Positions 15,738 to 27,316 of a stretch of DNA of 64,000 nucleotides are shown here, piece after piece (position 1 is the stretch's first letter; each line of letters opens with the position of its first letter). The stretch is from Gloeophyllum trabeum ATCC 11539. Lineage: Eukaryota; Basidiomycota; Agaricomycetes; Gloeophyllales; Gloeophyllaceae. The notes beneath the pieces were generated by a model, which was given only the letters and a program-made list of their open reading frames with translations, was not told the origin of the DNA and did no database searches. The translations under genes were made by a program, and so were the position numbers. The stretch spans positions 2,162,740-2,226,739 of the forward strand of contig NW_006920411.1 of NCBI RefSeq assembly GCF_000344685.1, given 5' to 3'.

Positions 15738-18700
15738 ATGCATTCTGCCCACAGCAGAAGTCGACGGCAGCATCCTGCCGGTGCTGAGGACGACGAGGCC
15801 TTGTTAGGCTCACGACGCGAAGAACCTGCTCGTGACTTGTCGTATTCTCGAGCACACCAATACCCTCATCGTACTGACTCGTACAGAGAACCTTCATCAC
15901 GAGATTTGAGCACTGAAGCGTCAACGTCGCGACGTCGTGACATGGACGACTGGCGCCACGCTGAACCGTCTCAGCTCGCTCATGATCGCCCCCAGACATC
16001 GTCAAACGACATGTATCGACGTGGTTCTCGTGATCCTCGGGACGCGCACGATAATGGCGTTCCTAGGTCAGACAATGGCTGGGCAACGCGAGATGCTCAT
16101 TTTTCAGCCAGAGATCGGGAATGGGACGACCGCGAACGCGACCGTTATGAGCCTTCTTATTCACCTTATCGTGAATCAAGTACCTGGAGCAGCAATGGGC
16201 GCTATGAGAGGAAGGCAGCATCGTACGATTCATGGGCAGACGACCGGGTTGCTCGTCGGTCCGTGGAGGATCGGCATGGGTCAGATAAGGACGATAGGTG
16301 GCGGAGGGATGAGCTTAGGGACCACTTACGGGATGGAGAGGACCGTCGATGGCGTAAGGAAAGCAACAACGATGCGAAGACCGAAGCCCGAGACGAACCT
16401 CGACGTCAATGGGGTGATTCCAAGCCCGTGAGTTCGCGCAGCAACAATGATGATCGCTCATGGGAACCTGCTGCCTCCTGGAAGCGGCGGGGTCCTGCAG
16501 AGCAAGGGCGCAATCAAAATCGCAATCAATCTGGCAAGAAGAAAAAGGGAAAGAAAAATAAGGACAGGGAGCGCGAACGCGAACGGGACTGGCGGAATGA
16601 TGACGGTTCGCTCAATAAGTATGCAATTCTGACTGTGAGGTACTTTCTGCTGATTATCCTGGTGGAATAGCTGGACTAGGAGGGATATGGGTCCGCCCGC
16701 GTCGACCAACCGCTCACCTGGAAAGCGCCGGCCGTTACGATCCCCTAGGTCAATGTCGAGGTCACCAGGAAGGTCATACGCATCCCGGCGGCCTTCTTGG
16801 GGACGGTCGAGATCCCGTTCTCGCTCCAGGTCGCGTTCGCGGTCCATCTCGCCGCGAAGGATGCGCCGTGATCGCAGTCCAACACCCCGGGGACGATCCC
16901 CTGGGTATGACCGTTCTCCTGCGAGCAAACGACACTACGGCCGATATTCTCGCTCTCCAGCGACGTCTCACCGAAGTTACGACAGTCGTGGCCGAGCGCG
17001 CCCAAGGAGTGTCTCCTCTGCTTCGAGTATTACGAGGAGTCCGAGTAGTAGTCCACCGAGGCGTCCCAAGGCCGTCCACCGGCTACCCCCAGCGACATCT
17101 ATAGAAGATATCGCGATCAACCTCTCGAAGAATCCACAACGTGGATCTCCGCGGAAAGGGCGCAATGCTGCGAATGGCAAGCATTCCGATGTAAGCAAGC
17201 AACCTTATGCACTAGCACGGGACGACATTTATAAGAGATCACAGAGTCGTACATCTGAAGTATCTCATGTAAAGCAAGGTTTGAGGACGGGTCGCGAAGA
17301 GGCGTCACGATCATCCCCTGTACGCTCGTCTTCGCGAGCCTCACCATTCCCGGAGGACCATTCCAAGAGCCAAGAATCTTCTTCAGGTACCCTCACAGAA
17401 GTGCAGTCGAAGTCAAACGTTCCCTCCGGTATCCGAGTTAAAGCGGGATTCAAACCTATCGGCCAAGTTAACGCCTCCAACTCTTCGCTAAAGAGATTCT
17501 TCCCGGACGACGATGAGGATGAAAATGAGCTGCCAGTACGATCCACGGTGCAAAAGTCTTCTACTGTCCCGGACCCCGTCACTACCATCCAGGGCCATAC
17601 CCCAGAGCACTCTGTACAGCCTTCTCCGCAGAGCTTAGAGGCAACTCGTGCCACAGATGAGGTTGCTATGGTTGTCGATAACGCAGGACATGAGCAAGTG
17701 CTGCAGGCTCAAGACCAACCGCGGCCCAACTTCCATCCAGGGCCGCCGTCCACGCCATCATCTCAGGATACTCTGCGTCAGTCATCTCTTCAAGAGCATA
17801 ATAGATTGGCTCTGAGTCACAAAGTGGGAGGGCCATTGCCAAGCCGATTAGCAACCCCTGTTGCTCCATCTTCTGATGGCACTTCCGAGACTTCATCGCG
17901 TGCTGATCTATACGCTATAGTAAGCCAGGTCGGTGAGGGCACTTTTGGCAAAGTGTACAAGGCGCGCAACACGATAACTGGGGTACATGTCGCCTTAAAG
18001 AGGATCCGGATGGAACAGGAGCGAGACGGATTCCCGGTCACTGCTATGCGTGAAATCAAGCTCCTTCAGTCCCTTCGTCACCAGAATGTCGTGAAGCTGT
18101 ATGAAATGATGGTGTCTCATGGTATGCACTGTCGCTGTCCACAACGTTACCTATGTCGGCTCATTATCCGTGTAGGTTCTGTATACATGGTCTTCGAGTA
18201 CATGGATCACGACTTGACGGGTGTATTAACGCAACAGCAGTTTGCCTTTTCTGATGCAAATCTCAAATCCCTTTGTCAACAAATGCTGGCTGGACTGGCT
18301 TACTTGCATCATAAAGGCGTTATCCACAGGGACATCAAAGGCTCGAACATTCTCTTGAACAACCGAGGCGAGTTGAAACTGGCCGACTTTGGACTTGCTC
18401 GTTTCTACCAGAAGCGGCGCCGTAGCGATTACACCAACAGGGTCATTACTCTGTGGTACCGGCCTCCCGAACTCCTGCTTGGCACTACTGTTTATGGCCC
18501 TGAGGTCGACATGTGGAGCGCAGGGTGAGTCTCAGGCCGTTCGTATGGAACTGTCTTAATGGAAAGACAGGTGTATCATGCTGGAGCTGTACACGAAGAA
18601 GCCCGTATTTCAGGGTAACGACGACATCTCCCAGCTGGACTCCATCTACAAGGTCTTTGGTACGCCGACCCCAGAGCGATGGCCCGGCGTGGCGGATATG

Positions 18701-19055
18701 CCGTGGTACGAGCTGGTCAAGCCGAAGGAGGTAATCGAGGACCATTTCCGCGTGCTATTCAAGAAATGGCTGTCTCATGCTGCGTTGGATCTTGCGGAGC
18801 AATTACTCAATTACGATCCCTCGAAACGTATAACAGCCGCTCAAGCTCTTGAAGCACCATATTTCACGCAAGAAGAACCGGCTCCTGCACTACCTGTCGG
18901 GTTCGTTCATTTTCGCAACCTCTCACATGCCATTATTCACTCAGTGGTATCATAGATTGTCCACCTTGGAGGGTGAGTGGCACGAGCTGGAAGCCAAGCG
19001 GGAGCGGGAGAGGGTGAAGAAGCGGAGGAGAACCGAAGGCGAAGTGTTCCAGTGA
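15738..19055 (+). CDS. CTK1/CDK12-type cyclin-dependent kinase with RS-rich N-terminus
   Basis: A nuclear kinase expected to phosphorylate the RNA polymerase II C-terminal domain during elongation. The first about 310 residues are Arg/Ser/Asp-rich (RDRERERERDW and similar). After a 52-nt intron (16619-16670) comes a run of alternating RS dipeptides, then a disordered linker. The kinase domain starts at about 17900: GEGTFGKVYKA (P-loop), ALKRIRM (catalytic Lys), FPVTAMREIK (PITAIRE-like helix), HRDIKGSNILL, ADFGLARF and RSDYTNRVITLWYRPPELLLG with a T-loop Thr. Further introns are 18122-18175, 18525-18570 and 18901-18955. The last exon is a charged tail ending RRRTEGEVFQ. HRDIKGSN and the RS domain favour CTK1/CDK12 over BUR1/CDK9. 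An ATG 30 bp upstream (15708) is an alternative start. Confidence 0.9.
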
Positions 19056-19137: not shown

Positions 19138-20707
19138 TCATGCTGATACTGTGGCTAATAGATTCTTGTTCGAAAGGTGTTGTACAATTGATTCCACCTG
19201 AAATCCGATTTTCAGTGAGTGAATTCAGTATGGAAACATGCGTACAAACCTCTGCTGCAGTCTGGCGGATCTGCATGTCCCATCGCTTTGTGAAAGGCGC
19301 CCCAGGATCCTCGGTCTCCTGCTCCACGTCTCCTAGACCTCCAGCCTTGTTCTGAGCTTCTTCGTCCTCACTTCCGGTTTCGAACCATATCAATCTGTCT
19401 ACCTGATCAATGTAGCCCTTGAGGCGGCCCTGCTCGATCATCTTCCGGGCCATGGTTTCCGCTGCACCAGGTGTGAGGTCTAACAGAGCTCCGAGACCGC
19501 GGAAAGTGATGTTGTTGTAGATCTTGGAGCTGGCGAGAAGGTTGTGTTCCAGAACGGCTCGGTCGAGGACGGTAGAGGGTCCTGTGCGCTTGCTGGCGCT
19601 TGGCTCTCTCGAGGATGAATCGTCTTCGTCAGCATCTGCGGTAGACGCGAGGCGGTCGTTTGAGGATATGCTGATCTTGGCAAGCTGGTGGGTCTTGAGG
19701 GTGCCCTCGAATTCGTGAACTTCGGCCGGGCGCAGGATGCGGTCGAGGAACATCTTCGACAGGATGTTGTGGGTGGGAAGCTCGGCGGTGCGCTCGTCGC
19801 GGCACAGAGAGGCAAGGACGCGGGATCGGTTTGGGCCTGCTGGCGCGAGGACGGCACATGTCACTGCAGCGGATCTGGGGGACGCGGGAGATGAGGATCC
19901 GACACTCGGAGGATTCGAAAGCGACGTACAGCATATGCCTGCGCTCTTCTTCATCGATATCTGCTACCCAGCTGAGCTCGTGGTATCGTTGCGCAGCCTC
20001 CAGGAACCTCCGGCTATAGTCCATAATCCTTGCTTGGCACAATTTGAACGCTAGCTGGGTCTCTTTGTCGGTTGCGCTGTGCGCGAGGAGAGCAGCACGG
20101 TTATAGTACGTTTCTGCTTGTACGGAGTCTTCATCCTCGAGCAATAATCGAACGATGCGGATATACACCCGTAACTTCTCCTCATCAGACACCGATCTGA
20201 TACCTTGCTCTCAATGAAGTTCAGTGGCGCAGGCGGAACACACAAAATACCTCTGACTGGACTCTAGTGATATCCCCATAAGCACCCGTGCTGCGTCGCT
20301 CCATTCTTCCTCCTCCTCCAAGAGGTCCGCGAGTTGGAACCGTAATACGTTTACCTATCGGAAATGTCAGCTTATGGATGCCGCGCACAGATGGACGATC
20401 GTACCTGCTCCTCGTAACTGACCAGCCTTGGTTGCACTATCGCAAGCGTGTCTTCCACAATTTGCTTCCGAGTCGCAGAGGCCTTGATGACGCCCCCTCC
20501 GAGAGCCTTCGCCAATTCAGACAAGACCTGTCTGCCCACGACAGGGCCGACGGCGTCACTGTTCACGACATGGTCGACGAGCGTGTGGACATCGGCCGCA
20601 ACAGTAGACTGGTCGTCGCGCGTAAGCACCTCCTGAAGCAGAGACAGATACGCCGGCGCCTTGTCTTTCTGGCCGAGCGACGTGTACTGAGCGAGCCTAG
20701 CATCCAT
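19138..20707 (-). CDS. CSN4: COP9 signalosome subunit 4 (PCI domain)
   Basis: The COP9 signalosome removes NEDD8 from cullins; CSN4 is a PCI-domain structural subunit. The protein begins MDARLAQYTSLGQKDKAPAY and continues through helical repeats (SDEEKLRVYIRIVRLLLEDED, AETYYNRAALLAHSATDKETQL, RFLEAAQRYHELSW) to a PCI/winged-helix module. Joining a short intron after QIRQTAAE gives VESIVQHLSNKNLLATVSA and a stop at 19138, the expected C-terminal helix of CSN4; without the splice the frame runs into unrelated sequence. An upstream in-frame ATG at 20749 would add 14 residues; I prefer 20707. Convergent with the CTK1-type gene (82 bp) and divergent from the repeat-exon gene. A DCAF-type cullin-4 receptor sits two genes away, probably by chance. 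Confidence 0.92.
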
Positions 20708-21224: not shown

Positions 21225-24200
21225 ATGTCTCGATTCACGTCCACGCCTTTCCATAAGCCTTCTCCGTTCGACGTTCCTCGACCGGTCCACCCTCTTAGCC
21301 CGCCAGACACAGATTCAGATATAATGGGTCCTGCCCAGCACTCCTCTATGTCTATGACGCTCGGCGGAGACGCAGAGTCAGCTACCATTCCCATCGCGGC
21401 CCCTACAGAAACGCCGGCGTCGCGGTTCAGGAAAATAGCGTACCTCAGCTCTGGGCTGGGTGCAAACGCAAGAGGGGATACACATGCGCGAGAGCGAGTG
21501 ACTCCCCGAACGAAGTGGTTAGTAGTGGTTGTCCCGCCCACGACCTTTCCGCAAGAGCCAGGTCACCTCGGTCACACGCTGTCCTCGGGCCCATCGAGTC
21601 GGTTGTCTTCCGGTCTCCTGATGCCTTTATTCCCAACGGTGAGCATGAATATGCTATACAACCCGGGAGATTACTTATCAAGCTGTAGATGTATGGACAA
21701 CTCTCAGCAATCGCGAAGGAGTTCAACTTCCCTAGCACGACCGGCCTTTGCTTGTATCTTCATGTGACCGAGAGCGGGTTCACGTTCACTCCCCGCATTT
21801 CGGACGAATCCTGGCAACTCCTGTGGGGTCACTTATTTGAGGCTCGATCACCGGTCAGCTCGACTGCGCAGCTGCCTATCAGCGGCAGGATAGAATTCGA
21901 CATCGATCTGCGCAAGGCCCGATGGTACGACGCGTGGATTGCATCTTCCCAAAGGGATGCGTATGATGTTCCCATGTCGATGCCCGGCTCCCGCGCCCCG
22001 TCTGTTGTGCATGCTCGGCACGACAGTAGGACGACTTTTGCTGAGGACAACATGGTGGACGACCAGGTGGATACTGAGTCTGTAACGCAGCGAACGAGAA
22101 CCATGCGTCATGTCCCAAGGAAACTGTCTCTTCTGGACCGCTTTGACACCCTCTCAGCGCGTTCGGTGTCTCGGGCTCCTTCACAAGCCGAAATATCTCC
22201 GCCCAAGCCAGAACATTCTGACCACCGGGCCATTAACTCCCTCTCACCCATTGTGCAGGAGGAAGAACCCAAGTCTGCGAAGAATGACCTAGAGTCTCGC
22301 GTTCGGAACTGGAGGGCCAGTTCGTCTGTTGCTCCTACTCCTTTGGCTGCGACCGGTCAATTCAGCCTGGATCCCGTTAACATGCCGAATATCGTTTCGC
22401 TAGATTCACCCGTCGTGGAAGGCGAGTATGAACTCAACCTTGACGACTTCACCTGGTCTATCTCGTCTGCGGGACCGGAAGAGTTTGAATATGACGTCGA
22501 GTCAGTCTCGTCTGGACGTGTGCTATCTGTGCATATGGACCGTAGGGCGGAAGGTTCAGTCTGCCTTACTCCTTCGGTTTGCACCTCGTACGGGCCAGAG
22601 GACTATGATGATCTTTACTCTCCTGTCTCAAATGTGGATCGCCTACCTTCTCCCGATCTCGGTCAGCGGATGTTGGAGAGCGTCCCGCCTACCCCATCAA
22701 CTGCTACAAGCTGGGGTCCGGATGACTACGCCTACGACTACCTCTACTCGCCCATCTCCAACGTTTCGCGCCTTCCTTCGCCCGATCTGGGACGCAGGAT
22801 GCTATCCAGCCCTCCTCCCACTCCTTCGACCGCTACGAGCTGGGGCCCTTCGTCGTCATACCCGCCGTCGCCCGTGGTGAGCGAAGGCTACGCCCAGTCC
22901 GTCGACATCGGCTTGCGCAATGACGGCTGGAGCAGGCCGAATACGCCGTCGACGGCGACCAGCTGGGGTCCTTTCGAGTCCTACCCCCCCAGCCCCGCGA
23001 CGCCGTACTACATCCGGACGCCTGATGCCGGCGAGCGAGCGTTCGATCTGGAGATGCCCGCGGAGAGGTTCTCCTTCCCGTATTATAACGTGTGGACACG
23101 CGCTCCCTGGAGGTTTGTCTGGCCATATACTCGACAACGGGAGCCGGATAATGAGCAGACGCTTGAGGTGTCCCCGCCTGACGTCGGTGCAGCGCCACAG
23201 AGTCCCTTCGGATTCCCGTATTATAGGGCCAGGCAGTCTGAGCCTTGGAGTATGGTTTGGCCATACCGTATTCAAAAGGAGGATCGTGACCTTGCCGGTG
23301 ACAATTCGGTACGGTTGAGCGCGAAGTACCCCAGGTTTGACCTCTGTAAGCTTTTCTCTTTACTGAGTTATGCCGCTATCGTGACTGAGAAGTCGCAGAT
23401 CCCGCTGTGTACCCGCATCTCGACATTTATCCCCCGATCGTGCCGGCCTACGATGCCAGGGAAAAGGTATCGGTCGCAATACCCGCGCGCTATCCCACGT
23501 TCTCGTTGTGTATGTCTCCATCGCATATCTACATGTATTCAGATCTGACTCGCTGGTCGTAGATCCTGCAGTCTATCCTTGCCTGGAGATCTACCCCGGT
23601 TATATCAACGTCCTGGAGGGTGTCAGAACCGAGCAGCTGACGCCGAAGTATCCCACCTTCAGCATCTGTGAGTCCATCTTGTCGCTCCCAGTGGACGCGT
23701 AGGCATACCAATCACGTAGATCCCGCTGTCTATCCGCACTTTGAAATCTACCCTGAGCACGTCTGTGGTACAGGAGCTGCTTCATTGGCGGTGAGTTTGA
23801 GTCGCCGGATCATATCTCGCGCTCCCAAGGACGTGGTCCCCAGTATTTGTGAGTTCTGTCCAATCACGTCCCGCTGTGGCAAGCTTACATCGTAATACTA
23901 GCTGCGGGGGTGTATCCGCACCTCCAGATCTACCCTAGTATCCGCCCTCGGAAAGCAGGTGACAGGCAGCTAATCTCGGTGACTCTATTCAAGTATCCTG
24001 TCATGAAAATTTGTAAGTCCAGTTCTTGTCTTATTATATCTCTTGCTCATTGTTGCATTTCAGATCCTGCCTCATACCCCCACATGGAAATCTACCCGGG
24101 TCATGTCCACAGTGCCGAAGTAGAAGAGCCAATAATAGTCTCCCTTCCATCTGCATACCCGGCCCTCGAGATCTGTACGTATACACTCTAAAAACTATTA

Positions 24201-26033
24201 GTCGACTCTCACGCATTGCGCAGACCGAGCGGTTTATCCTTGGAGTTTGATCAGCATTTACCCTGCCCACCGTACCTACAAGGGTCAACCACTTTCGGCC
24301 AAGCAGGAGCGTACAGAGCAATACCCGGACTTCGATATTTGTATGTCTCTTCCTCAATCGGACGTGCCCAATATTGAGTATCTGCTTCCTGCAGATCCTG
24401 CTATTCATGACCCCTCGCGCGATGAGGGATACTACAAGACTCGATCCGTTGAGCTTAAGGCGAGGTACCCGGCCTTCGATCTCTGTAAGTCGCGTATGTA
24501 CTACATCCTGCACTTATGGGACTAAAGCGTTTCTCAGACTCGGCATTGTACCCCCATTTCAATATCTACCCATCAGCGAGTGGTCCCGTGTGCACTGCTA
24601 GGGCGGGTTCTGGTTCTCAGGCTTCAAAGGGAAATTTCTTGCGCGGGATCGATATGCGGCTCTCAGCTCTGTATCCCTCCTTCAACCTCTGTGCGTATTG
24701 CTGCGGCGTGTGGACCGAGCTCTATACTCATACGCTTTGATCCGTATTAGATCCAGCCGCTTACCCTCACTTCGATATCTATCCAGCGTGTTTCGTGCTT
24801 GCCGCAGAGGCACTTGGCCCAAGTCGACTTAGTCCTCGGTATCCGTTCATCAGCTTATGTATGGCCCAACCAGGTTTGTTTACCGTAATCTTACTTACTG
24901 CATTCTGTCAGATCCCGCGGTTTACCCCTCCTTTGAGATCTACCCTGGCGTCGTTTGTGACGGTGCCCTGCCCGGTGTGATCTCTGTTAGGTTGGTTGGC
25001 AAATATCCGACCATTAGGACATGTGAGTCACCGTCTTCCTCCACTTAAGAGCTGAAATTGACACTACGTAGATGAGGCTATCTATCCTCATCTAGACATC
25101 TATCCGGCGGCCTCATGTGCCTCGATGTCGGCAGTCAGGATGGCGAGGAGTCGGCGGACTCATGCCGAGTTACACGAGGAAGTGTTCTCATCTGGCTATG
25201 TTATAAGAAAGCAGCCATGGAAGACGCATCTGCAACTGCACGAGGAAGTGCTCGCTTCGGGCGCAACAGGGCCAAGGTCTGAATCCCCTCCACGGGGAAA
25301 TGTCAGTCCCACTGAGCCCGCTCGGCGCAGGGTCTCGTTTGCATCTGATACCGTCATCGAACCCGCCCATGCTTCTGCCCCAGCCCCGCGCATCACTCGC
25401 TCGCGGTCTGGTACTGTGAAGCTTGATATTCCTCCTGTACCTCCCCTCCCCCCGCAGTTTGTATCGAAGCCCGCTCCCTCTCCGAAACCATCTCCATTAC
25501 GTGGTGTGCCGCGGAATGGTCTACCATTGCACCCCGCCCAGAAGGTCAGGCCTATTTCCGTTGTTGTCGATACCATGGCGGAACACAGGAGGACGTCGTC
25601 CTCATCTTCGCAATCATCAAATGCAGAGAGTTGGGAAACGTCGCCGTCCGCGCGTGTTGCCCGGACGAAGTCTATGATCATGACGGGCATGTCTCCTGAA
25701 AGCCCTGTCGCTACACTGGACAGATCGAACTCTTTGAATGATGCCAGGAGACCCAGCCGGCCACGGAATAGCCTAGTGTCCGAGCGCATGAAAGCCTTTG
25801 ACAACTCGTCGTCATCCTCCTCTTGTACGTGCCGACGTATCTCGTTCAACAGTTCCTTCACTTAACGATGTTCCTTTGTAGCTGAGCGCAGCGACCCTGA
25901 CGGTACGCCCGTAAGGATCACCCTGAACACGCTGTCTCAATTCCCTATGCCCCCGGCTCCGAAGGCCGTGCCCATCCCTGATGGCAGGAGACGTATATCA
26001 AAACTGGACAGATCCAAGTATCCGTTCGCATGA
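21225..26033 (+). CDS. Unrecognised repeat protein with tandem symmetric exons (about 1373 aa)
   Basis: No family recognised. Hand-joined exons: 21225-21638, 21689-23345, ten short exons from 23399 to 25022, 25072-25824 and 25882-26033. They total 4122 nt, exactly 1374 codons with the stop, so the frame is consistent throughout. Residues 1-250 hold a possibly globular region (MYGQLSAIAKEFNFPSTTG, ARWYDAWIASSQRDAY). The middle has imperfect repeats around TPSTATSWGP and YSPISNVSRLPSPDLGRRML, then two blocks of the form FPYY..PW..VWPY. Next is the exon array with a YPxFxIYPAxYPHxEIYP motif, then a duplicated THxxLHEEVxxSG segment, a Ser/Pro-rich tail and the end KYPFA. No signal peptide or membrane segment seen. 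A structural or scaffold role is possible but unproven. Confidence 0.8.
22570..22990 (+). repeat. Imperfect coding repeats around TPSTATSWGP
   Basis: Within the second exon of the same gene, four related blocks follow each other (TPSVCTSYGP, TPSTATSWGP three times). Two of the spacers share DxLYSPxSNVxRLPSPDLGxRML. A second internal duplication layered on the exon array. Confidence 0.8.
23399..25115 (+). repeat. Array of ten symmetric phase-1 repeat exons plus terminal half-repeat
   Basis: Exons: 23399-23509, 23563-23667, 23720-23848, 23902-24012, 24064-24174, 24224-24340, 24395-24484, 24538-24690, 24751-24858 and 24912-25022. Their lengths are 111, 105, 129, 111, 111, 117, 90, 153, 108 and 111 nt, all divisible by three. 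Each intron (49-60 nt) splits a codon after its first base T; it is completed as TAT or TAC (Tyr), or once as TCT (Ser). Each exon opens with (Y)PAVYPHxEIYP-like sequence and closes with YPxF(D/S)(I/L). The 90-nt exon has lost its internal VYPHxEIYP. A further opening half starts the exon at 25072 (YEAIYPHLDIYPA). Confidence 0.88.
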
Positions 26034-26297
26034 TCTAGCCAAGGTCTTTCTTGATTACTGTCCATATGTTCTCTTAGAGTTGGAGGATATGCTGTATTTA
26101 TTCGCGCGCATCAAGAACCGGTCGGGTGTACCACTTCTGTCTGTCCCTTTAATCCTACAAGAATAGTACACATTGAGAACTGTAATGCTGTGTTCAAACG
26201 GTGAAATAGACGATGCAAAGGTTCCTTCCTTCTTAGATGGTGAGCGCGAGGTCAGAATTACATGGCGCGAGCCCTTCAGCACAAAATCCTAGTCTTC

Positions 26298-27316
26298 CTA
26301 ATCCATTTCAGAGCCATCATCTGAGCCACGTCGAGGGTAGGGAGGTGGTATGTCGAGGTCGTCGCCATGGACAATAGCACCTGATAAGGTTCTCCCTGGG
26401 CCTGTCATTCGTACAGCAGATGTAGAAGGAGAAGCGGGAGGAGACATAGATTGCCTGCTTGCAGCTGCAGTAGCTCGCGCCTCTCTGAGCTCCTTTTCCC
26501 GTTTGTCGTTAAGGAGCTTACTCTTACGGTCGTCCATGAAGGCGAGTTTGACCTGAAAGATGGGTCTTGCTTGTGAGAGGAAACAGAGTCAGAAGAGATT
26601 GGGCACGGACGTTCTGCGCTACACTCGCAGCGGCTACCTTCTCTTGCTCTTTCCATCGCTTCATCCGTTCTTGCTGCTCCGCTTTGCGGTCCAGTACTTC
26701 GTGGATAATGGCGGCTCCTATGCGGAGATCGTCCATGTGGCGCGGATTGAAGACGTAGTAAGGCTGAAACTCCTCAACCTAGACGGGTATCCGAAGTCAG
26801 ACAGTTCCGAACTGATAGCAGGTGAGTGCCTACCTCTGTACGAAATCCGAGCTGGGCGGAACGAGTACATACGATTAGTGACACAAGCACGAGCAGTACG
26901 AAGATCACTGACAGCTATTGCATACTCTAACGCGCCCTTGGGGTCTATCAGGCGCTCCTTGATGGTGCTGTTGGTCGGCTTGAATCTCTGGAACTTAGAG
27001 TTGTTCGGTTCTCGCAGCAGGTTGTCTGCTATGGTGGACAGGGTCTGCAAAGCCACAAGTATGAACGTATGTCCATTACAGCGCGGCGAGGATTAAGTAC
27101 ACGCAGAGCGACCATGGACACTTCATCTGGATTGCGCGTGAATATACCAGGCTCTATCAGCCGTCTGAACTCTTGTCTCTTGTCGTGCTCCCGCCGATGC
27201 TGTTCTTCGGCGTGCAAGGCAGCTTTTTGTTGCGTCCGGCGAGCAGCTGCTGCCGCAATGCTTTCACGCACACTGGGACCGGGGCTGCCTGCCGGCGATA
27301 CGTTTCCCGAGGACAT
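26298..27316 (-). CDS. PUB-domain protein, possible Cdc48/p97 cofactor
   Basis: Start MSSGNVSPAGSPGPSVRES, followed by an Ala/Arg/Gln-rich helix (AAAARRTQQKAALHAEEQHRREHDKR). After a short intron comes TLSTIADNLLREPNNSKFQRF, then KPTNSTIKERLIDPKGALEYAIA. This matches the PUB (PUG) fold of peptide:N-glycanase and UBXN6, which binds the C-terminus of the AAA ATPase Cdc48/p97. Later exons hold VEEFQPYYVFNPRHMDDLRIG, a charged coiled coil (DRKAEQQERMKRWKEQEKVA) and a Ser/Pro-rich tail ending PYPRRGSDDGSEMD. No transglutaminase domain is present, so it is not the glycanase itself. The Cdc48 link is inferred from the domain. Convergent with the repeat-exon gene (264 bp). Confidence 0.72.

What the first reader, a model, noticed from the sequence alone, without database searches (positions are those of the whole stretch)
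23399..25071. Tandem array of ten symmetric phase-1 exons encoding a Tyr/Pro repeat
Ten consecutive short exons (90-153 nt, all multiples of three) are separated by 49-60-nt introns that all split a codon after a T, usually Tyr. Each exon carries an opening (Y)PAVYPHxEIYP and a closing YPxFxI half. Any exon could be lost, gained or skipped without breaking the frame, so the gene is built for variable repeat number by exon duplication or alternative splicing. The introns look unrelated to each other while the exon motifs are kept, which suggests old duplications under protein-level selection. I know of no described domain with this motif.
Basis: partly seen in the sequence, partly recalled or inferred. 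Interest (0 to 1): 0.9.

Follow-up and report, generated by a model that had tools for sequence, protein, structure and literature searches.

The report
Exon-built tyrosine-proline repeat protein in mushrooms
A brown-rot fungus carries a real gene whose long floppy tail is assembled from ten interchangeable small exons, each adding one copy of a tyrosine-proline motif, and relatives of the gene in other mushroom-forming fungi carry different numbers of copies; what the tail binds is not known.

Summary
The window is Gloeophyllum trabeum ATCC 11539. The array lies in one gene (about 21225-26034, +, 14 exons); an independent public model, GLOTRDRAFT_125804, joins the same exons letter for letter. 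Exons 3-12 are ten symmetric phase-1 exons. The true repeat is an 18-residue element, YPx[FL][DN][IL]YPAVYPHF[DE][IL]YP, and each of eleven introns cuts an element after the T of its central codon (Tyr in ten, Ser in one): eleven elements, ten symmetric exons. The 120 homologues listed carry 3-24 elements (median 11). Unspliced relatives run into an intron at the same codon, and near-identical units in 44 of 120 show that unit number still changes. No Pfam family over its cut-off, no PDB sequence match and no paper was found. The protein has a probably ubiquitin-like (beta-grasp) N-terminal domain, shared with a repeat-less paralogue, and a tail predicted disordered. Tyr is almost never replaced by Phe and Ile/Leu is kept at Tyr+5, so I infer a multivalent tail of docking motifs. 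The best-fitting known motif is YPXnL, the ligand of Bro1/PalA/ALIX V domains; two V-domain loci are in this genome, but binding is untested. Exon skipping is possible in frame; nothing here shows it happens.

The parts
21225..26034 (+). Whole gene, coding part, 14 exons and 13 introns; 1373 aa if the upstream ATG is used (the public model starts at Met42, about 21348)
21513..21949 (+). Folded N-terminal domain (about residues 97-225; intron 21639-21688 inside), probably beta-grasp / ubiquitin-like; limits transferred from models of homologues
22640..22975 (+). Second repeat type, RLPSPDLGxRML and PPTPSTATSWGP, several copies (ends approximate)
   Evidence: sequence
23105..23266 (+). Third repeat type, PWxxVWPY, two copies (ends approximate)
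   Evidence: sequence
23327..23345 (+). End of exon 2: first half (YPRFDL + T of the split Tyr) of element 1
23399..23509 (+). Array exon 1 (gene exon 3), 111 nt
23563..23667 (+). Array exon 2, 105 nt
23720..23848 (+). Array exon 3, 129 nt
23902..24012 (+). Array exon 4, 111 nt; starts with the rest of the split Ser codon
24064..24174 (+). Array exon 5, 111 nt
24224..24340 (+). Array exon 6, 117 nt
24395..24484 (+). Array exon 7, 90 nt; opening half decayed (PAIHDPSRDEGYY)
24538..24690 (+). Array exon 8, 153 nt
24751..24858 (+). Array exon 9, 108 nt
24912..25022 (+). Array exon 10, 111 nt
25072..25106 (+). Start of exon 13: second half of element 11
23346..25071 (+). Span of the eleven phase-1 introns, each inside an element (23346-23398, 23510-23562, 23668-23719, 23849-23901, 24013-24063, 24175-24223, 24341-24394, 24485-24537, 24691-24750, 24859-24911, 25023-25071)
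25158..25250 (+). Doubled C-terminal motif THxxLHEEV
   Evidence: sequence; HxxLHxxV present in 91 of 120 homologues

Best explanation
This is one protein-coding gene of a conserved, uncharacterised family of mushroom-forming fungi. Shown: the tail is built from tandem same-phase exons whose introns all cut a repeated Tyr/Pro element at the same codon, and an intron at this codon is found in relatives. Strongly inferred: the array grows and shrinks by duplication or loss of intron-exon cassettes, and because every boundary is the same phase and every upstream exon ends in T, such a change keeps both frame and motif. Inferred: the protein is a cytoplasmic adaptor (no signal peptide by eye; no predictor was run), with a ubiquitin-like head and a long disordered tail that displays many copies of a short Y-P-x-hydrophobic-x-[IL] docking motif, so that exon number sets valency. 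Weakest step: the partner is most likely a Bro1-family V domain (Bro1/ALIX or PalA/Rim20), whose known ligand is YPXnL. My odds: gene structure 0.97, cassette duplication 0.8, multivalent docking tail 0.45, V-domain partner 0.2.
For: Exons and joins. A JGI protein of a relative (P0050) has 20 elements in a 4764-nt frame on a contig of 5115 nt; the 351 nt left could hold about seven introns of 50 nt at most, so it reads as a transcript. Intron site in relatives: of the 120 listed proteins found with the N-terminal profile (11 of 120 carry an ncbi source; the rest come from metagenome-type sources and look mostly like unspliced frames), the residue at the split site is Cys in 100 of the 175 sites in the eight residues printed, followed by Glu or Lys in 75 of 100, as a read-through donor T|GTGAG or T|GTAAG gives; in the 120 full-length homologues Cys stands at 13 of more than 2200 sites. 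Five of those 120 carry a whole retained intron, equal to 48-57 nt, at that codon. Cassette change: 44 of 120 with unit pairs at least 70% identical, Mycena filopes with six near-identical 41-residue units in a row; units 5-10 of G. trabeum best match units 5-10 of Heliocybe one to one, while Neolentinus has 13 units against 10. Docking motif: with context fixed, Tyr stands at 2196 of 2211 sites and Phe at 6; Ile/Leu at Tyr+5 in 828 of 906. YPx3[LI]: 2219 in 120 proteins against 135 after shuffling, 19 in G. trabeum. Tail pLDDT about 28-41. Receptors: two loci with PF13949 matches over the cut-off, both with an FYX2L string close by, which PMC5145805 (passages) says binds YPXnL.
Against: The conserved motif is longer and stricter than YPXnL: it also keeps Phe/Leu at +3 and the YPAV middle, which a V-domain ligand does not need as far as I know. 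It also fits the looser YxxPhi sorting motif. PMC5145805 (passages) stresses that FYX2L and YPXnL together do not predict which pairs bind, and that one Bro1-family protein takes an FPXL motif, so the lack of Phe is not required by every such domain. Other late-type motifs are not clearly enriched (P[TS]AP 23 against 47 shuffled, PPxY 180 against 152). V-domain genes are expected in fungi generally (recalled), so their presence is weak support. Three of 11 elements are worn. Shuffling keeps composition only, so it overstates the enrichment of any repeated motif. Outside the elements some Tyr columns also never take Phe. DNA of relatives could not be read, so cassette duplication rests on proteins and frames.
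Confidence: 0.45

Rival explanations
1. The Tyr/Pro tail is a self-associating structural segment: aromatic stickers and short beta-prone stretches make a gel or condensate, and unit number sets how readily it forms.
For: Fairly regular spacing (median unit 39 residues), predicted disorder, high Tyr/Pro content, variable copy number.
Against: Aromatic stickers usually tolerate Phe or Trp (recalled); here Phe replaces Tyr in 6 of 2211 context-matched sites, and the Ile/Leu position is strict.
Confidence: 0.25
2. The elements are YxxPhi sorting signals read by an AP-adaptor mu subunit; the protein is an endocytic or Golgi scaffold.
For: YPxF, YPAV and YPHF all fit YxxPhi (motif recalled); 4985 matches in 120 proteins against 2009 shuffled.
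Against: YxxPhi does not explain Pro at +1 (745 of 763 context-matched sites) nor Ile/Leu at +5 (828 of 906).
Confidence: 0.1
3. Repeat number is regulated by exon skipping: symmetric exons give a ladder of isoforms.
For: Each of the ten exons can be left out without changing frame, and all eleven upstream exon ends are T, so the split codon at the joint stays that of the downstream exon.
Against: No isoform seen, though none could have been seen for this fungus; symmetric phase is expected from duplication alone; the public model includes all ten exons.
Confidence: 0.12
4. The exons are not real: an accidental row of open fragments.
For: None found; no RNA of this fungus was available.
Against: Independent identical gene model, 262 homologues, read-through intron signs at the same codon in relatives.
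Confidence: 0.01

Closest known systems
GLOTRDRAFT_125804 family (hypothetical proteins of Agaricomycetes)
   Same: This gene is that locus; homologues share the N-terminal domain and the elements.
   Different: The names printed give no tested function: nearly all are 'hypothetical' or 'uncharacterized'; 'salivary gland secretion 1' (P0022) and an autophagy-related name for P0121 look automatic, and neither protein matched Pfam.
Bro1/PalA/ALIX V-domain ligands (YPXnL; PacC/Rim101, Rfu1, retroviral late domains)
   Same: Tyr-Pro with Leu/Ile at a fixed distance; YPX3L is an accepted form (PMC4907476, passages).
   Different: Known ligands have one or a few motifs (recalled); here 19 YPx3[IL] in one protein, inside a longer strict element. 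No binding data.
Tandem symmetric-exon genes (collagens, titin and similar; recalled)
   Same: One phase throughout, one repeat per exon, in-frame gain and loss.
   Different: In a fungus, with introns of about 50 nt that cut through the middle of the conserved motif rather than between repeats.
Repeat-less paralogue G000:C1:557228 (710-aa frame)
   Same: Same N-terminal domain (pairwise E 5e-12); its own set of 349 homologues, 120 listed.
   Different: No Tyr/Pro array in the frame read.

Membership tests
GLOTRDRAFT_125804 family | Homology including N-terminal domain and elements | tested here: met
   262 proteins at E<=0.001, 120 listed; elements found in all 120 of these
Any Pfam domain or repeat | Match to a curated model over its cut-off | tested here: not met
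   0 families at E<=1 for the full protein; of 7 relatives scanned, only sub-threshold hits (P0011 E 0.14; P0068 E 0.011 and 0.045); the collection lists PF19063 for P0068, 1 of 120, and this is below the Pfam cut-off
Ligand of Bro1-family V domains | YPXnL/I motif | tested here: met
   19 YPx3[LI] and 10 YPx[LI] in P0001
Ligand of Bro1-family V domains | Receptor with FYX2L in the same genome | tested here: met
   two PF13949 loci, each with an FYX2L string in a neighbouring frame of the locus; exon joins of these genes not modelled
Ligand of Bro1-family V domains | Physical binding | not testable with these tools
   no complex prediction or assay available
Beta-grasp (ubiquitin-like) domain | Fold of about residues 97-225 | tested here: inconclusive
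Ras-association or PB1 subfamily | Specific similarity above other beta-grasp domains | tested here: inconclusive
   ties within 1 Z with ubiquitin, ISG15 and FERM
Alternatively spliced exon array | Isoforms lacking whole exons | not tested
   no reads for this species in the tools

The most novel reading that the evidence does not exclude
A fungal scaffold whose binding valency is set by exon number: each intron-exon cassette adds one Tyr-Pro double motif for a Bro1/PalA-type V domain, so that ESCRT or pH-signalling recruitment is tuned between species, and perhaps by splicing, through gain and loss of identical-phase exons. The intron in the middle of the binding motif would make every duplication regenerate an intact motif at the joint.
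Probability: 0.13. Interest if true: 0.85.

Novelty: new variant of a known kind. Interest (0 to 1): 0.55.

Why it matters
It is a clean natural system for how exon duplication changes the valency of a disordered protein: many species, one gene, countable units, introns at a fixed codon. The family, apparently widespread among mushroom-forming fungi, has no assigned domain or function that I could find. If the V-domain reading is right, it would link a mushroom scaffold to ESCRT or pH signalling.

Tried and rejected
A second copy in the genome: the 18-nt pattern hit at C2:1976889 is a single frame without array; a search with a repeat peptide gave 7 places at E<=1, of which 6 lie in this gene and the seventh has E 0.21. 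Tandem Repeats Finder does not report the array, presumably because its units are too diverged. PDB by profile: 0. The fold searches cannot name a subfamily; RA, PB1, FERM F1 and ISG15 are tied, and Atg8-like and USP7 domains also appear. Ras-association was considered and left open. Papers, judged from titles and the starts of abstracts: six motif strings gave 0 papers; searches on symmetric exons and exon duplication (4 papers; 25, of which 20 listed), Tyr-Pro repeats (91, of which 20 listed), the locus tag (0) and repeat expansion or exon repeats (1; 0) showed nothing on this family. That is a statement about those searches in an open-licence library only. Late-domain motifs P[TS]AP and PPxY are not clearly enriched, which counts mildly against an ESCRT role. 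Tyr-to-Phe control: outside the elements some Tyr columns take Phe (10 of 50, 10 of 33), others do not (0 of 49, 0 of 50), so the contrast is a tendency. Filters: 6 of 1449 elements with gaps were left out of the column counts; units over 90 residues or starting under 15 residues apart were left out, and some short or misphased units may raise identities and shift counts (the Neolentinus units 2, 3, 9 and 10 look misphased). Only 120 of 262, 120 of 146 and 120 of 349 hits were listed and used. Alignments: 50 of the 120 homologues in A1, 67 chosen proteins in A3.
Full report
What is there. The window belongs to Gloeophyllum trabeum ATCC 11539: its protein is in the public records as GLOTRDRAFT_125804, on a contig of the same length, 3398809 bases. 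I modelled the gene from the sequence: 14 exons, 13 introns, coding 21225-26034 on the + strand (a first script had two borders wrong). The public protein, which I had not seen when I made the model, is identical from residue 42 to the end. The two models differ only in the start codon. Ten consecutive exons (23399-25022) are 90-153 nt, all multiples of three, all entered in phase 1, and separated by GT-AG introns of 49-60 nt.

The repeat redefined. Written across the splice joints, the repeat is one element, YPx[FL]x[IL]YPAVYPHFEIYP, and each of eleven introns cuts its central codon after the T: Tyr in ten, Ser in one. The profile finds eleven elements in the public protein, separated by variable spacers; the seventh array exon has lost its opening half, and the fourth and sixth elements are also worn. 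Conserved Pro and Tyr codons use several synonymous forms, and intron interiors are about as alike as shuffled ones (0.565 against 0.544). The duplications therefore look old and the protein under selection.

Distribution. A full-length search gave 262 proteins at E<=0.001; of the 120 listed, those with a name come from Agaricomycetes of many orders (orders recalled from the genus names), with no tested function in the names. A profile of the element found 1449 copies in the 120 (1443 without gaps), 3-24 per protein, median 11. In G. trabeum no second array was found. A second gene shares the N-terminal domain without the array in the frame read (C1:557228) and has its own relatives (349 hits, 120 listed).

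Splicing in relatives. DNA of relatives could not be fetched, but their translated frames tell. When an intron at this codon is read through, T|GTGAG gives Cys-Glu and T|GTAAG gives Cys-Lys in place of Tyr. Among the 120 listed proteins found with the N-terminal profile, 11 carry an ncbi source and the others look mostly like unspliced frames: 53 of 120 begin at an MYGQL-like start, that of exon 2. There the split site holds Cys in 100 of the 175 sites in the eight residues printed, followed by Glu (38) or Lys (37); 89 of 120 proteins show it. In the 120 full-length homologues Cys occurs at 13 of more than 2200 sites. Five of these full-length models contain one whole retained intron, C..DPAVYP, equal to 48-57 nt, in Favolaschia, Amylostereum, Amylocystis, Lentinula and Suillus (lengths derived from the residues), which by recall are four orders. 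So the intron site is shared across orders. Not every element has an intron in every lineage: some frames run through an element as Tyr (for example P0138, P0163). Joined exons are seen in P0050, a JGI protein with 20 elements: its frame of 4764 nt sits on a contig of 5115 nt, so at most about seven introns of 50 nt could be there even without untranslated ends; I read it as a transcript.

Change in number. 44 of 120 proteins have two units at least 70% identical; Mycena filopes has six near-identical 41-residue units in a row and a seventh, related one of 40. In the Gloeophyllales I count 10 units in G. trabeum, 10 in Heliocybe and 13 in Neolentinus; units 5-10 of G. trabeum best match units 5-10 of Heliocybe one to one, units 1-4 do not match in order. 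Within genera, elements number 14-17 in 7 Suillus proteins, 11-20 in 15 Mycena, 9-13 in 6 Lentinula, 10-11 in 8 Trametes. These counts depend on gene models, some of which are wrong. Duplication of intron-exon cassettes is the simplest account. The breakpoints are not seen.

What the tail may do. With the rest of the element held fixed, Tyr stands at 828 of 834, 825 of 828 and 543 of 549 sites for three of its positions; Phe replaces it at 4, 1 and 1. Ile or Leu stands at Tyr+5 in 828 of 906 sites. Elsewhere in the same proteins several Tyr columns accept Phe, though others do not. Such strictness in a disordered tail suggests that a partner reads the Tyr hydroxyl and the aliphatic residue: a docking motif in many copies. 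Among motifs I know, YPXnL fits best. It is bound by V domains of ALIX, yeast Bro1 and Rim20 through an FYX2L motif (PMC5145805, passages read); YPX3L is an accepted form (PMC4907476, passages); YPXL/I was defined for the Aspergillus PalA protein (seen only as a reference title in PMC2171039). YPx3[LI] occurs 2219 times in the 120 proteins against 135 after shuffling, and 19 times in G. trabeum. G. trabeum has two loci with the V-domain family over its cut-off, one of which matches human ALIX structures (E 4.6e-14), and both have an FYX2L string close by. Against it: the element is stricter than YPXnL, the same paper warns that the two motifs do not predict which pairs bind and describes a family member that takes FPXL, other late motifs are not clearly enriched, and V-domain genes are expected in fungi generally. 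I give the V-domain partner 0.2 and a multivalent docking tail of some kind 0.45.

Verdict. The idea of exon-based change in repeat number is supported between species; alternative splicing is untested. The gene belongs to a conserved, unnamed family, so it is not a one-off, but I found neither a domain model over its cut-off nor a paper for it. Tandem symmetric exons are a known kind of gene architecture (recalled); a fungal array with about 50-nt introns cutting through the conserved motif is a new variant of it.

Noticed in passing
22640-22975: A second repeat in the same protein, RLPSPDLGxRML and PPTPSTATSWGP, inside the long exon 2, with no introns between copies.
   Followed up: partly
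23105-23266: A third repeat, PWxxVWPY, two copies just before the array; some homologues shown have more copies (for example P0064).
   Followed up: no
25158-25250: Doubled THxxLHEEV motif after the array; HxxLHxxV is present in 91 of 120 homologues.
   Followed up: partly
L013:502-2634 (G000:C1:557228): Paralogue with the same N-terminal domain and no Tyr/Pro array in the frame; 349 uncharacterised relatives, 120 listed.
   Followed up: partly
16654-18955: Protein kinase gene (Pfam Pkinase 9.4e-56) with a long SR/RS-rich N-terminal part, on the same strand.
   Followed up: no
19629-20210: COP9 signalosome subunit 4-like frame (PSMD12-CSN4_N 8.2e-19), minus strand.
   Followed up: no
26718-27092: PUB-domain frame (1.7e-8, just over the cut-off), minus strand, downstream.
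   Followed up: no
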